Shown: one piece after another, positions 3,969 through 11,460 of the stretch | How positions within the stretch are numbered: position 1 is the first letter of the stretch | Layout of the letters: each line of letters opens with the position of its first letter | Source: Caldimonas mangrovi | Lineage (GTDB): Bacteria > Pseudomonadota > Gammaproteobacteria > Burkholderiales > Burkholderiaceae_C | Length of the DNA stretch: 64,000 nucleotides | Direction of reading: 5' to 3' | Assembly (NCBI RefSeq): GCF_023721835.1 | Contig: NZ_JAMKFE010000007.1 | Coordinates: forward strand, 62,001 to 126,000 | Notes under the pieces: generated by a model | What the model saw: the letters and a program-made list of their open reading frames with translations, nothing else | Told to the model about the DNA's origin: nothing | Databases searched by the model: none | Translations under genes and position numbers: made by a program

Positions 3969-3972
<4 letters not shown>
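1759..3972 (+). CDS. eCIS AAA+ ATPase with two ATPase modules
   Basis: This 737-residue protein corresponds to the AAA+ ATPase found in nearly every eCIS locus (Afp15/Pvc15 type), thought to act in particle assembly or cargo loading. The C-terminal module has Walker A GPSGTGKT (525-532), Walker B VLFFDEAEALFGKR (579-592) and a downstream arginine-rich segment DDAFTRRL that may supply the arginine finger. The N-terminal half (about 1-460) has a second P-loop-like motif, GPDGAGKF, near 279-288, which lacks the usual Thr/Ser after Lys and is probably inactive. The start at 1759 overlaps the previous stop and follows GGGGAG at 1744-1749. The stop overlaps the next ATG. Cytoplasmic. Confidence 0.9.
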
Positions 3973-6032
<2,060 letters not shown>

Positions 6033-6096
6033 AGCCGCTCGCGTCGCACCGCCGACCGCCGAGACGGTCTTGTGCCATGGCCGGAGGGGGAGCGCC

Positions 6097-8262
6097 ATGA
6101 AGCGCGGGCGGACATCGGCCGGCACCGACGTGGATCACGACGGCATGCTGTCGCGCCGCGAGGCAGCGCCGGGCGTGAATCCGGCGCGGGAGGCAGCGAC
6201 CGGCAGTGCGGGCAACCGCGCGCGCAGCGGCGCGATGAACGGCGCACGGCTGGATCCGCAGGTGCGCGCCGACATGGAAGCGCGCTTCGGCACGGACTTC
6301 GGCGATGTGCGCGTGCATGACGACGGCGAGGCGCATGCATGCGCTGCAGACCTCGGCGCAAGGGCCTTCACGGTAGGCCACGACATCGCGTTCGCGCAAC
6401 ACGCGTATGCACCGCACTCCGCGACCGGCCGCCGGCTGCTGGCGCACGAGCTGGCCCACGTGGTGCAGCAGCGCCGCGGCGGCCCCACGCCCGCGCTGTC
6501 GCAACAGGCACCGCACGAGCAGGCGGCCGATGCCGCGGCCGATCAGGTCGCGGCCGGTGCCACCGCCGTGCACGTGGAAGGCGGCACCGCCGTCGGCGTG
6601 GCGTGCGCCCCCGTGCCCAAGGCCGATGACCCCGACACCGCGCGTCGCCGCGAAGTGATGGAGCGCGAAGCGCAGGAACGCCAGGCCCGGCAGCAGGCAC
6701 GCGAGCAGGCGCATGCCGAGCTGGTGCTGGCGCTGCTCGCGTTTCGCCGCCACGAATACCGCTTCGGGCACTGGTACGCACGCATGGCGGCGCTGGAGCC
6801 GGGCGTGGTGTGGTCGGCGACCATGCGCCTGCTCGGGCCCTATGGCTTCGGCATGGCGTGCAAGGTCAGTTCCGGCGGTGTCGGCGAATACCTCAAGGAG
6901 TTCGACTTCGCCGTGTCGATCTGGGCCCAGGCCACGCGCTATCGCTACCTGAAGCGCGGTGCGCTCAGCGTGCCCATCTTCGACCCGGAAGGCGAGGAGG
7001 CGCGGCAGAACGAAGTCATCCTCGACGAGTTGCCCGACGGCACCGGCTACATCGGTCGCCGGCGCGACTTCCTCGCCGTGCAGGACGCGCAGATCAAGGA
7101 GCGCAACGCGCGCGTGGCGGAGAACATCGCCGCCAACGTCTTCGGTGCGGTGGGTTGGGGCCTGGACGGCGAAGAGGGCTCGGAAGCGGGCGCCGCGCTG
7201 GGCGATGTGGTCTTCAATGCGCCCGGCCGGGGGGGCCGCAGCCGCCCGCGCAAGCGGGGCACGGGCCGCGGGGGACGCGGCGGGCGCGGCTCGGGCCGTT
7301 CGGGCCGCGTCGTCAGGCCGCGCGCCGTCGGCAAGTCGGCGGGCTCCGCCTCCACGGCCGGCGCCGCGCAGGCGGCACAAGCCGCGCAGGCCGGCGTGGC
7401 GCCGGTCCTCGCGCCGGCAGCGGGCAGCGGCACGCCGGCCGTGGCCGCAGATCCGCTGGTCGCGGTGCCGATCCAGGGCCGCAAGAAAGGGGTGTTCTTC
7501 CGCCAGGGCACACCGGAATTCGGCAAGCATGCCGGCACCGCCACCCGCGCAGGCCAGCCCAAGTCGCCGCCTTCGCGCACCCATGTGGTGATGCCGGAGA
7601 GCCAGGCGCGTCAGCTCGGGTTTCGAGCGGAGGGCGAAGCGCCCACCAGTGCCATCGAGCCGCGCCGCATCGGCGGCCTGCAGGTCGAGTCCGCCGGTGC
7701 GGGCCGCCAGACCGGGCACCCCATCACCGCACGCACCAGCCGGCAAGCCGGCCGCAGCACAGGCTCCAGCCTCGAAGCGCCGCGCAAGAACAAGGCCGCT
7801 CAGCATGGCTTCGACCGCACCATCAAGGCCGACATCGCGCAGTCGCAGGGCCACAACGCCCTCATCGACGGTGGCGAGCTCGGCGTCCTGCGCCCCAACA
7901 ACGTCAGCACGCCGGGGGTCGATTCCATCACCGCGGTGATCGACGGCAACGGCAACGCGCGCATCTATCTCAACGACTTCACCACCCCCGGCACTCGCAA
8001 GGGCCCCAAGCCGACGCACGACAAGTGGCGCCGCGAGTTGCTGGATGCGACGGCACCCGGCCGCATGGATTTCGGGGGCCGCAAGATCGGCGGCGTGGCG
8101 GTCGAGGACTCGATCCGCCGGGCCATCGCAGCCAACGAGGTCTACGTGCGGCCGGTGAAGGTGTCGCTGCCGGACCAGGCGGCGCCCGGGGCCACGCCCA
8201 CCGGCGGCACCGCCGCGCCGACCGTCGAGCTGGGCAAGCTCATCCGCTTGAAGCAGCCATGA
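6097..8262 (+). CDS. eCIS core (DUF4157) protein 2 with unassigned C-terminal domain
   Basis: This 721-residue protein starts at the ATG following GGAGGGGGAG (6083-6092). The eCIS core domain (about 50-145) contains RFGTDFGDVRVH and LLAHELAHVVQQ, HExxH at 117-121. A helical region (about 185-350) follows, then a Gly/Arg-rich linker near 375-405, and a C-terminal domain from about 499 to 690. That domain has the landmarks MPESQA, GGELGVLRP, PGVDSITA, IYLND, KPTHDKW and RMDFG, and is clearly homologous to the C-terminus of the next gene product. The layout (core, linker, C-terminal module) is that of an eCIS-associated toxin. The activity of the C-terminal module is unknown to me. No immunity gene is evident. 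Confidence 0.8.
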   Translation: MKRGRTSAGTDVDHDGMLSRREAAPGVNPAREAATGSAGNRARSGAMNGARLDPQVRADMEARFGTDFGDVRVHDDGEAHACAADLGARAFTVGHDIAFAQHAYAPHSATGRRLLAHELAHVVQQRRGGPTPALSQQAPHEQAADAAADQVAAGATAVHVEGGTAVGVACAPVPKADDPDTARRREVMEREAQERQARQQAREQAHAELVLALLAFRRHEYRFGHWYARMAALEPGVVWSATMRLLGPYGFGMACKVSSGGVGEYLKEFDFAVSIWAQATRYRYLKRGALSVPIFDPEGEEARQNEVILDELPDGTGYIGRRRDFLAVQDAQIKERNARVAENIAANVFGAVGWGLDGEEGSEAGAALGDVVFNAPGRGGRSRPRKRGTGRGGRGGRGSGRSGRVVRPRAVGKSAGSASTAGAAQAAQAAQAGVAPVLAPAAGSGTPAVAADPLVAVPIQGRKKGVFFRQGTPEFGKHAGTATRAGQPKSPPSRTHVVMPESQARQLGFRAEGEAPTSAIEPRRIGGLQVESAGAGRQTGHPITARTSRQAGRSTGSSLEAPRKNKAAQHGFDRTIKADIAQSQGHNALIDGGELGVLRPNNVSTPGVDSITAVIDGNGNARIYLNDFTTPGTRKGPKPTHDKWRRELLDATAPGRMDFGGRKIGGVAVEDSIRRAIAANEVYVRPVKVSLPDQAAPGATPTGGTAAPTVELGKLIRLKQP

Positions 8263-8271
8263 GGGCACGCC

Positions 8272-11200
8272 ATGGCTGACACAAGCTCCATCCGCGCTGC
8301 ACCGGGCCCGCAAGGCGGACGCCCGGCGCGCCGCACACCGGCTGCGCGCCACGGCGCAGGCGCCGCGGGCGCCCTGGAACAGGCCGTGGCGCCGGCCTGC
8401 GCCGGCGGCAACCTCGCCATCGGCCAGGCGCTCGGCGCCGGCGCACCGCTGGACGACACCATCCGCCAGGAGATGCAGGCACGCTACGGCGCCGACTTCT
8501 CGCAGGTGCGCGTGCACGCCGGGCCGGCGGCAGCCAGCTCGGCCGACGCCCTGCACGCCAATGCCTATGCCGTGGGCCGCGACATCGTGTTCGGGCCGGG
8601 ACGCTATGCGCCGCACACGCGCGAAGGCCGGCGGCTGCTCGCGCATGAACTCGCGCACGTGGTGCAGCAGTCGCGCGGCGGCCCGCGGCCGGCGTTCGAC
8701 CCACAGGCGCCGCACGAGCAGGCGGCCGACCGCGCGGCCGATGCGGTCGCGAGCGGCAGCGGAACGGTCGCGGTGGAGGGCGCCACCGGCGTGGGCGTCG
8801 CGGCCGACATCAAGGGCTGGTTCTCAAAGAAGTACGAAGGCGCGTCGCAGCTCGTCGACGAGGCCAAGGAGATGGTGCCCGACGAAGTGCGCGAGGTCGC
8901 CGGCGACGCGCTCGACCTGGCAGGCGACGCCGTGGACGTCGCGGTCGAATACGCCCCGTATGCGGCCGGCCCGGTGGTGGGCAACGTCGTCGACTTCCAG
9001 CGCGCGGTGATCACCGACATCAAGGAAGAGATCACCGGTGTCGACGACCCCGAAGCCCTCGGCGTGCGCGAGACGGCGGCCCGCAAGGTCGACTTCGCGG
9101 TCGGCGTCAGCAAGGGCGCCGTCTCGCAGGTCACCGACCTGGCCGACACCGTGGTGTGGGCCGGCTCCGAGCTGCGCGATGCGAAGAACACGGTGGTCGA
9201 GAAAACCGCCGAAGTGGCCGGCATCGACCCCGAGACCGCGAAGACCGTGGCCCGCGTCGGCAGCGTGCTGGTCGCTCCGTTCGCGCCGCAAGCCCTGCTG
9301 GCCGACGCGCTGGGCGGGGCCAACGACGCGATGAAGGAGGCCGGCTGGGTCGATGAACAGGGCAAGGCCAGCCTGACGACGCAGGTGCAGGACCTCTACG
9401 ACTACGCCGGCGACAAGGTGCTCGAGGTCATCGACGCACCGAAGAAGGAAGCGGACGACAGCCTCTTCACCCAGCGCGAGAAGGGTGAACTGCTGGGCGC
9501 CGTCGGCATCCAGGTGGCCGGCGCCTTCGTCGGCGCGACCGAGGTGAAGGTGGGCCTGGCCGTGGTCGGCGCGCTCGGCGGCATCCGCGGCATCGTCGAG
9601 ACGATGCGCGCCCACCCGAACGACTTTCACACGCAGCCGTCGTTCTGGTCCGGGCTGCTCACCACGGCGCTGTCCATCGTCGGGCTCAAGGGCAAGGGCG
9701 CGTCGAAGAAGATCATCGACATCGCGCTGAAGTGCGGCGCGCTGGCGCAGGTGGTGCCGCACCTGTGGCAGCTGTACAAGGACTACAACGACACGGAGTT
9801 GCAGGCCGACCCCGAGCGCTACGAGCAGACGCTGAAGCGAGATTTGAACGCGGTAGTCCGGGCGGTGGTCGACGTGGTCGTGATGATCATCCGCAACGGC
9901 GCCGCCGGCAAACCGACGCCCAAGTACAAGGGCGGGCCCCCGAAGGGCGGCCCGGTGGGCGACGTCGGCAGCGAAGGCGGCGTGCCGAAGGCACCGGCGG
10001 CAAGCGCAGCCGACGCCGGGGGGGCCACGCCCGGCCCGGCCAACGAGACCGCCACTGTCGCGAAGCCGCCTTCGGCCACGGCACTGAAGAAGGCCGACCT
10101 GCGCGCCCAGGGCGCCAAGCGCAAGGCAGACACCGCCGATGCGCGCGCCAAGAAGGCCGAGGACTCGGCCGCGGCGCGCGAGGCGGCGTCGCAGAAGGCC
10201 AAGGCCCGGGCCGACGAGCAGCGGGCCCGCGCCGAGAAGAACGCGCAGACGCTGCAGGACAAGCGGGCCAAGGCCGACGAGAAGGCCCAGGCGCTGGCCG
10301 AGGCGCAGCAGAAGGCCGCGGCCAACGGCGGCGACGCGAAGGCAAAAGCCAAGCTCGACAAGGCGGCCCTGGCGGCCGACAAGGCCGCGGCCGACGCCCG
10401 CACCAAGGCCGAGAACGCCGGCAAGCGTGCAGACTCGGCGCGTGCCAAGGCCGACACTGCCGACGCCAAGGCCGCCGCCGCCGAGCAACGCGCGCAGGAC
10501 GCCCGCGCCCAGGCCAACGACGCCCGTGCCAAGGCCAAGCAGGCCGAGAGCAAGGCCCAGACCGCGAAGGAAAAGGCCCAGGCCCTGCGCGGCCCGGACG
10601 ATCCGCAGGCCTCTTTCGCCGACCTCAGCGACCCGGCGCATGCCTCGCCGTCGAGCGGCCCGGCCTTCAAGCCGAATGCCGAGCCCATCGTGTGGGTGCG
10701 CACCGGCAAGGGCAAGCAGCGCTGGAGCTACGTGCCCGAAGGCGACAAGCGCTTCGGCAAGGGCGAGGGCGTGGCCATGCCGAAGAGCCAGGCCGACGAC
10801 CGCAACTTCACGCCGGCCGGCGAGGCGCCCAAGATCGTTCCGATCACGCCGCGCACTGGCGCGAACGGCCGGCCGGTGGAATCCACCGGCGCCGGCGGGC
10901 GCCGCGGCTCGCGCTACGCGAGCGCGTCGGCCAAGGACCCGCGCGCGGTGACCGAAACCTCCATCCGGCCCGACACCAACGAGAACCAGGCCTACAACCG
11001 CCACCTCGACACCGGCGAATTCGGCATCCTGCGGCCGCAGGGCTCCAATGCGCCTGGCGTGGATTCGATCACCGCGCGCATCGAGTTCGACGCGCAGGGC
11101 CGGCCGGTGCGCGCGACGATCTACCTCAACGACGTCACCACGCCCACCGCAGCCAAGGGCGCCAAGCCCTCGCATGCCAACTGGCAGCAGGAGCTGGCCG

Positions 11201-11460
11201 GCGCGATCGATCCCAAGGCGCCGCCGGGGCAGCGCATGGACTTCGGCGACCCGGCCATCGACGCGGTGGTGCGCAAGGCGGCGGCCGACGGCAACGTCTA
11301 CATCCGCGTGGTGCGCACCGAGCCGACCGCCGCCGGCCACCAGTCGGTCACCATCGACCCGGCCGAAACCTTCCGCGCCGGCCCGGTGACGGTGCCGCGG
11401 CTGCCCAACGTGGCCGAGGTGCGCGACGGCGAGCGCGAGGACGAGGAGGCGGCGCCATGA
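8272..11460 (+). CDS. eCIS core (DUF4157) protein 3 with long Ala/Lys coiled coil
   Basis: This 1062-residue protein is the longest of the three core-domain proteins. The DUF4157 domain (about 55-150) has LLAHELAHVVQQ with HExxH at 125-129. A long mostly helical region with amphipathic segments (about 180-560) follows, then a highly repetitive Ala/Lys/Asp/Glu coiled coil at about 604-773 with recurring AKAD and KAKAD units. From 836 to about 1015 comes a domain homologous to that of protein 2 (MPKSQA, TGEFGILRP, PGVDSITA, IYLND, RMDFG). It may be a large cargo, or its coiled coil may run along the tube lumen as a tape measure, since no other tape-measure candidate is seen. The stop overlaps the next ATG. 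Confidence 0.8.
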   Translation: MADTSSIRAAPGPQGGRPARRTPAARHGAGAAGALEQAVAPACAGGNLAIGQALGAGAPLDDTIRQEMQARYGADFSQVRVHAGPAAASSADALHANAYAVGRDIVFGPGRYAPHTREGRRLLAHELAHVVQQSRGGPRPAFDPQAPHEQAADRAADAVASGSGTVAVEGATGVGVAADIKGWFSKKYEGASQLVDEAKEMVPDEVREVAGDALDLAGDAVDVAVEYAPYAAGPVVGNVVDFQRAVITDIKEEITGVDDPEALGVRETAARKVDFAVGVSKGAVSQVTDLADTVVWAGSELRDAKNTVVEKTAEVAGIDPETAKTVARVGSVLVAPFAPQALLADALGGANDAMKEAGWVDEQGKASLTTQVQDLYDYAGDKVLEVIDAPKKEADDSLFTQREKGELLGAVGIQVAGAFVGATEVKVGLAVVGALGGIRGIVETMRAHPNDFHTQPSFWSGLLTTALSIVGLKGKGASKKIIDIALKCGALAQVVPHLWQLYKDYNDTELQADPERYEQTLKRDLNAVVRAVVDVVVMIIRNGAAGKPTPKYKGGPPKGGPVGDVGSEGGVPKAPAASAADAGGATPGPANETATVAKPPSATALKKADLRAQGAKRKADTADARAKKAEDSAAAREAASQKAKARADEQRARAEKNAQTLQDKRAKADEKAQALAEAQQKAAANGGDAKAKAKLDKAALAADKAAADARTKAENAGKRADSARAKADTADAKAAAAEQRAQDARAQANDARAKAKQAESKAQTAKEKAQALRGPDDPQASFADLSDPAHASPSSGPAFKPNAEPIVWVRTGKGKQRWSYVPEGDKRFGKGEGVAMPKSQADDRNFTPAGEAPKIVPITPRTGANGRPVESTGAGGRRGSRYASASAKDPRAVTETSIRPDTNENQAYNRHLDTGEFGILRPQGSNAPGVDSITARIEFDAQGRPVRATIYLNDVTTPTAAKGAKPSHANWQQELAGAIDPKAPPGQRMDFGDPAIDAVVRKAAADGNVYIRVVRTEPTAAGHQSVTIDPAETFRAGPVTVPRLPNVAEVRDGEREDEEAAP

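What the first reader, a model, noticed from the sequence alone, without database searches (positions are those of the whole stretch)
7591..11316. Unassigned C-terminal domain shared by two eCIS core proteins
Residues about 499-690 of the protein at 6097 and about 836-1015 of the protein at 8272 align over most of their length. Common landmarks are MPxSQA, GEAP, VESxGAG, GE(L/F)G(V/I)LRP, PGVDSITA, IYLND, a TTP..KG.KP(T/S)H block, RMDFG and VY(V/I)R. In modular eCIS cargo the C-terminal part is the toxin or cargo-specific part, yet here it is duplicated beside very different middle regions. The Glu and Asp landmarks could belong to a nuclease-like fold, but the usual ExK is not seen. It may be a new toxin domain or a tube-loading tag.
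Basis: partly seen in the sequence, partly recalled or inferred. Interest (0 to 1): 0.75.

Follow-up and report, generated by a model that had tools for sequence, protein, structure and literature searches.

The report
Shared tail module of eCIS cargo
Two neighbouring cargo proteins of a bacterial injection device end in the same rare, unnamed module, which most likely is a poison part resembling DNA-cutting enzymes, although one expected active-site residue is missing and its function is unproven.

Summary
The proteins at 6097-8262 (721 aa) and 8272-11460 (1062 aa) share an N-terminal eCIS_core domain and a C-terminal module (451-689 against 803-1016, 36% identity, E 1e-29) behind unrelated middles. 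No match in Pfam, NCBIfam, PHROGs or PADLOC lies in the module above chance level, and no credible relative was found outside this genome, within the limits of each search. The third eCIS_core protein of the operon lacks it, and it was not found in the eCIS_core-bearing relatives tested. That argues against a general loading tag and for a cargo-specific effector domain, usual in DUF4157 (PVC-metallopeptidase) proteins. The gaps beside the two genes leave no room for an immunity gene. The conserved skeleton E-x14-D-x17/22-D-x-T, with the first Asp just before one predicted strand and the second inside the next, resembles a PD-(D/E)xK nuclease whose Lys is Thr; Lys and His are conserved just downstream. 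Best reading: a new, rare effector domain, perhaps a lysine-less or lysine-migrated nuclease (about 0.5). New variant of a known kind.

The parts
6097..8262 (+). eCIS_core (DUF4157) cargo protein 1, 721 aa
   Evidence: ORF; Pfam eCIS_core E 2e-31 at residues 52-128
8272..11460 (+). eCIS_core (DUF4157) cargo protein 2, 1062 aa; its stop overlaps the ATG of the next gene (Pvc16_N) at 11457
   Evidence: ORF; Pfam eCIS_core E 9.1e-33 at residues 59-136; overlap read from sequence; Pvc16_N in the next frame
7447..8166 (+). shared C-terminal module, copy 1 (residues 451-690)
   Evidence: BLASTP E 1e-29, shuffles
10678..11319 (+). shared C-terminal module, copy 2 (residues 803-1016)
   Evidence: BLASTP E 1e-29, shuffles
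7822..8157 (+). core of the module, copy 1 (residues 576-687): E594, D609, D627-F-T629, K635, K638, H641, W644
   Evidence: 53 of 107 aligned residues identical to copy 2; residue map
10963..11313 (+). core of the module, copy 2 (residues 898-1014): E916, D931, D954-V-T956, K962, K965, H968, W971
   Evidence: residue map; predicted strands 932-939 and 945-956 and helices 968-978 and 994-1005 in the low-confidence model
6250..6480 (+). eCIS_core domain of cargo protein 1
8446..8679 (+). eCIS_core domain of cargo protein 2
3969..6032 (+). third eCIS_core protein of the operon, without the module (context and negative control)
   Evidence: eCIS_core E 2.5e-31; no similarity to the module

Best explanation
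The module is the cargo-specific effector (toxin) end of two DUF4157-type proteins carried by this eCIS. It is present as two diverged copies of one rare domain, each joined to a common eCIS_core front end and an unrelated middle. It most likely has a PD-(D/E)xK-like nuclease core: Glu594/916, Asp609/931 before one strand and Asp627/954 in the next strand would hold a metal ion; the Lys of the (D/E)xK triad is replaced by Thr and may be stood in for by Lys635/962 or Lys638/965 in the following loop. Delivered by the eCIS, it would cut nucleic acid in the target. Shown: shared module, residues common to the two copies, eCIS context, no room for an immunity gene beside the two genes. Inferred: fold, metal site, nuclease activity, target.
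For: Position and modularity: common eCIS_core N-terminus, unrelated middles, shared C-terminus, in an eCIS operon. In PMC3482391 (section 13 read) PVC-metallopeptidase proteins (DUF4157) have a conserved N-terminal domain followed by variable C-terminal toxin domains, and a notable proportion lack immunity genes; here the gaps beside the two genes are 64 nt, 9 nt and an ATGA overlap. The module does not look generally needed for eCIS cargo: absent from the third operon protein; of 18 relatives with eCIS_core, 7 were searched whole and regions of 8 more were fetched and searched without a match. Of 17 core positions where either copy has D or E, 7 are identical in both, among them E594, D609 and D627; two Lys and the His of KGxKPxH are also kept. 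PD-(D/E)xK-type toxins on DUF4157 proteins or in eCIS are known: BaCT (PMC7073777, passages), EAT9 and EAT16 (PMC11297309, passages).
Confidence: 0.5

Rival explanations
1. The module is a non-enzymatic delivery part: a C-terminal tag, adaptor or chaperone-binding domain that helps load two otherwise different cargos, whose middle regions are the real effectors.
For: The same module sits behind unrelated middle regions; no immunity gene adjoins it; the triad Lys is missing in both copies.
Against: The third eCIS_core protein of the operon lacks it. It was not found in the eCIS_core-bearing relatives tested. PMC11495950 (abstract start in a search listing) and PMC11297309 (passages) place the loading signal at the N-terminus. 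Acidic, Lys and His residues of the core are shared by the two copies.
Confidence: 0.22
2. The module is an enzyme with another fold, for example a metal-independent RNase using His641/968 with Lys635/962, Lys638/965 and an acid.
For: K, K, H, W and E in KGxKPxHxxWxxEL are the same in both copies; the second model resembles no nuclease clearly; several PVC-linked Ntox families in PMC3482391 are listed as predicted RNases.
Against: E, D, D with their predicted strand order fit a metal site better, and two helices before the last shared strand do not resemble a simple strand meander (inference).
Confidence: 0.17
3. The module has a PD-(D/E)xK-like fold but is catalytically dead and binds nucleic acid or a partner.
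For: D-x-T in place of D/E-x-K in both copies.
Against: Both acids and the upstream Glu are kept in both copies although 54 of 107 aligned core residues differ. From memory, active enzymes with Glu or Gln instead of Lys exist (BamHI, BglII).
Confidence: 0.11

Closest known systems
DUF4157 / PVC-metallopeptidase / eCIS_core cargo proteins (PF13699; PMC3482391, PMC8213781)
   Same: N-terminal eCIS_core, long middle, C-terminal module, eCIS operon, no immunity gene beside it
   Different: two adjacent proteins share one C-terminal module behind unrelated middles; the cargo genes lie between the AAA ATPase gene and the Pvc16_N gene, the second overlapping the latter's start
BaCT, a PD-(D/E)xK DNase domain sometimes fused to DUF4157 (PMC7073777, passages)
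   Same: C-terminal, found on some DUF4157 proteins; a PD-(D/E)xK-type motif
   Different: BaCT has an invariant (D/E)xK and all but four of 97 members are in Bacteroidetes; here D-x-T; sequences were not compared
Tox-REase-1 to -10 (PMC3482391, table rows seen)
   Same: acid order of a restriction-endonuclease-type toxin
   Different: all ten rows list a Lys in the motif; no Tox-REase model of Pfam matches the module
EAT9 and EAT16 (PMC8213781, PMC11297309, passages)
   Same: eCIS-associated toxins described as restriction endonuclease or resolvase types
   Different: sequence relation not tested
Ntox4, Ntox5, Ntox6 and Ntox14 (PMC3482391, table rows seen)
   Same: alpha+beta domains found on PVC-metallopeptidase proteins
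   Different: not compared; which of them have Pfam models was not checked

Membership tests
eCIS_core (DUF4157) cargo | eCIS_core domain above the Pfam cut-off | tested here: met
   108.4 and 112.7 bits against a cut-off of 22
eCIS_core (DUF4157) cargo | encoded in an eCIS operon | tested here: met
   AAA, Pvc16_N, sheath, gp19, CIS_tube, gpV, PAAR, gp25, Baseplate_J
eCIS_core (DUF4157) cargo | HExxH motif | tested here: met
   HELAH in both proteins
eCIS-associated toxin | toxicity to bacteria or yeast | not testable with these tools
   needs expression
PD-(D/E)xK superfamily | acid-x-Lys on the third core strand | tested here: not met
   D627-F-T629 and D954-V-T956; hence not filed as a member, only as resembling one
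PD-(D/E)xK superfamily | Asp at the start of the preceding strand, and an upstream Glu | tested here: inconclusive
   D609/931 and E594/916 are shared by both copies and the Asp precedes a strand in both models, but the models are of low confidence
PD-(D/E)xK superfamily | alpha-beta-beta-beta-alpha-beta core fold | tested here: inconclusive
PD-(D/E)xK superfamily | metal-dependent nuclease activity | not testable with these tools
   needs enzyme assay
Toxin families with a Pfam model (Tox-REase, Ntox and others) | match to the family's Pfam model | tested here: not met
   no toxin family among the matches in the C-terminal part, up to E 5 or 10; HMMER's filters can lose weak matches, and families without a Pfam model are untested

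The most novel reading that the evidence does not exclude
A new family of eCIS effector nucleases with a PD-(D/E)xK-like core in which the catalytic Lys is replaced by Thr and its role is taken by a Lys (or His) of the KGxKP(T/S)H loop shared by both copies, carried in duplicate on two unrelated middle regions so that one particle type can deliver two versions.
Probability: 0.22. Interest if true: 0.6.

Novelty: new variant of a known kind. Interest (0 to 1): 0.42.

Why it matters
Most DUF4157 cargo has no recognised toxin domain: PMC11297309 (passage) counts 983 of 1130 predicted DUF4157 toxins without another annotated domain. A defined module of about 115 residues with named candidate residues in two natural copies makes one such case directly testable, and could add a lysine-less nuclease type. 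The shared module also offers a natural test of which part of a DUF4157 protein is effector and which is linker.

Tried and rejected
Relatives. Plasmids: 1 record at E 0.9; none up to E 10; 6 records at E 2 to 9. Phages: (none). Whole protein 2 against plasmids: 83 records; the 25 listed rows cover only the eCIS_core stretch. The middle of protein 2 was found in 1 of 106 family genomes, the own one. Genomes searched for the module: 1 of 100 relatives, the own one; order, 18 of 399 at E 0.1; phylum, 2 of 398 at E 0.003, the own one and G407; 0 of 7 named genomes; class of a Streptomyces, 1 of 296; phylum of a Myxococcales genome, 0 of 235; family of the Streptomyces, 0 of 200; phylum of a Chloroflexi genome, 0 of 106. 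In the larger sets only the best 10 to 40 first-look candidates per genome were scored, and the sets overlap. Sensitivity: one copy finds the other at E 9.8e-24.

Rows dropped. G407 (E 3.3e-5) is a frame opposite a gene that I take by eye for a pirin-like protein. Of the 16 other genomes (E 6e-4 to 0.1), alignments of seven (L008, L010, L012, L015, L017, L018, L021) were read; none keeps the E, D, D positions together with the rest of the core. L018 keeps a GELG..RP......GAD stretch of 34 residues in a 153-residue frame (E 0.066) and nothing more; I took it for chance but did not follow it. The other nine (L006, L007, L009, L011, L013, L014, L016, L019, L020) were not read as alignments and were dropped on weak score, short match or stops. 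G917 (L201) aligns over 50 residues of a 98-residue frame. The Azospirillum plasmid hits are one unrelated protein without the motifs; the Yersinia ruckeri plasmid hits have E 9.

Relatives with eCIS_core. Of the 18, 7 were searched whole, regions of 8 were fetched and searched, and 3 (G1363, G1387, G1392) were covered only by short loci, which may end before the C-terminus. In one search the only strong matches are the two loci that hold own protein 1; the end of own protein 2 lies outside these loci.

Folds. Model 1, model 2, Foldseek and VIA and the viral library (best E 0.31): nothing significant. Coordinates of the models were not at hand, so distances could not be measured.

I recalled, from no call, that similar motifs with GVDFITA and an acid-x-Lys exist in DUF4157-like proteins of other bacteria. 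The pattern allowed for it; no such protein was found, so the memory is not used as evidence. The remarks on BamHI and BglII and the sorting of PDB titles into nuclease folds are recalled as well.

Full report

Context. The genes lie in an eCIS operon: AAA ATPase, then three eCIS_core proteins, then Pvc16_N, sheath, gp19 tube, CIS_tube, a weakly GPD-like hub, gpV, PAAR, gp25 and Baseplate_J. The start of the Pvc16_N gene overlaps the stop of the second module-bearing gene, and the gap between the two module genes is 9 nt, so no immunity gene lies right beside them; one elsewhere in the genome was not looked for. The G+C of the modules (0.71 and 0.72) is close to the window's 0.70, so composition gives no sign of recent import. 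The genome has four eCIS_core places, three here and one on another contig, and two copies of the module at E 0.001.

What it is not. In Pfam, NCBIfam, PHROGs and PADLOC none of the matches of the whole proteins lies in the module; the core alone gives chance-level Pfam matches only, best E 0.065; no solved structure matches by sequence up to E 10. It does not look like a general eCIS part: the third operon protein lacks it. Nineteen of 150 genomes drawn from the family, the own one included, have eCIS_core. Seven of the 18 others were searched whole for the module without a match, regions of eight were fetched, and three are covered by short loci only. Profile searches over 2508 open frames of at least 40 residues from loci L202-L249 give strong matches only in the two loci that hold own protein 1; beyond these there is one 75-residue frame (in three overlapping loci) at E 0.2 and a shadow frame in L203 at E 0.6. 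Of 14 eCIS_core proteins of relatives that a script picked and I scanned, one has a second Pfam family over its cut-off, a TGL transglutaminase; 13 have none. PMC11297309 (passages) reports the same for most such proteins.

Relatives. Searches of viral contigs, genome contigs, plasmids, phages and sets of whole genomes gave no credible relative; counts, limits and dropped rows are in Tried and rejected. The module is therefore rare or fast-evolving.

Literature. [quoted passage not shown] its rows for Tox-REase-1 to -10 all carry a Lys. PMC7073777 (passages) describes BaCT, a PD-(D/E)xK DNase found also behind DUF4157. PMC8213781 (passages) and PMC11297309 (passages) report eCIS-associated toxins, including restriction-endonuclease and resolvase types; the latter also lists one restriction-endonuclease candidate that was not toxic. 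Paper searches were (listings); none can find a sequence, so I make no claim that the module is absent from print.

Verdict. The shared module is real. It is best read as a rare effector domain present on two cargo proteins, with a possible lysine-less or lysine-migrated nuclease core. Function and fold remain to be tested.

Noticed in passing
window 3969-6032: The first eCIS_core protein of the operon has an EHHGLPKFLGG...ELHYLYHEEL stretch (about residues 258-290) that by eye recalls HH-type (HNH/EndoVII) nucleases; Pfam gives no match to that stretch.
   Followed up: partly
L236:2458-3963 (+), L239:1601-3199 (-), L240 eCIS_core ORF of 785 aa: eCIS_core proteins of three relatives share, by eye, another C-terminal region (IEFG/VEFG/FDFG ... 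GGT/GGS...F at the end), so a second recurrent C-terminal type exists in the family.
   Followed up: no
L242:1095-4985 (-) and L243:546-4625 (+): Two very long, similar helical eCIS_core proteins of different genera end in a KGHLLNH-containing region that by eye recalls a nuclease.
   Followed up: no
L246 (own genome, contig C12 near 456161): A fourth eCIS_core gene lies far from this operon in the same genome.
   Followed up: no
window about 10069-10611: The middle of cargo protein 2 holds a long Ala/Lys/Glu-rich, probably coiled-coil stretch (about residues 600-780).
   Followed up: no
window 3969-11460: Three eCIS_core cargo genes lie in front of the structural genes, between the ATPase and the Pvc16_N gene, closely spaced (gaps 64 and 9 nt) and the last overlapping the next start.
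   Followed up: partly
L018: A 153-residue frame in a genome of the same order holds a GELG..RP......GAD stretch like the first part of the core (E 0.066, alignment); probably chance.
   Followed up: partly
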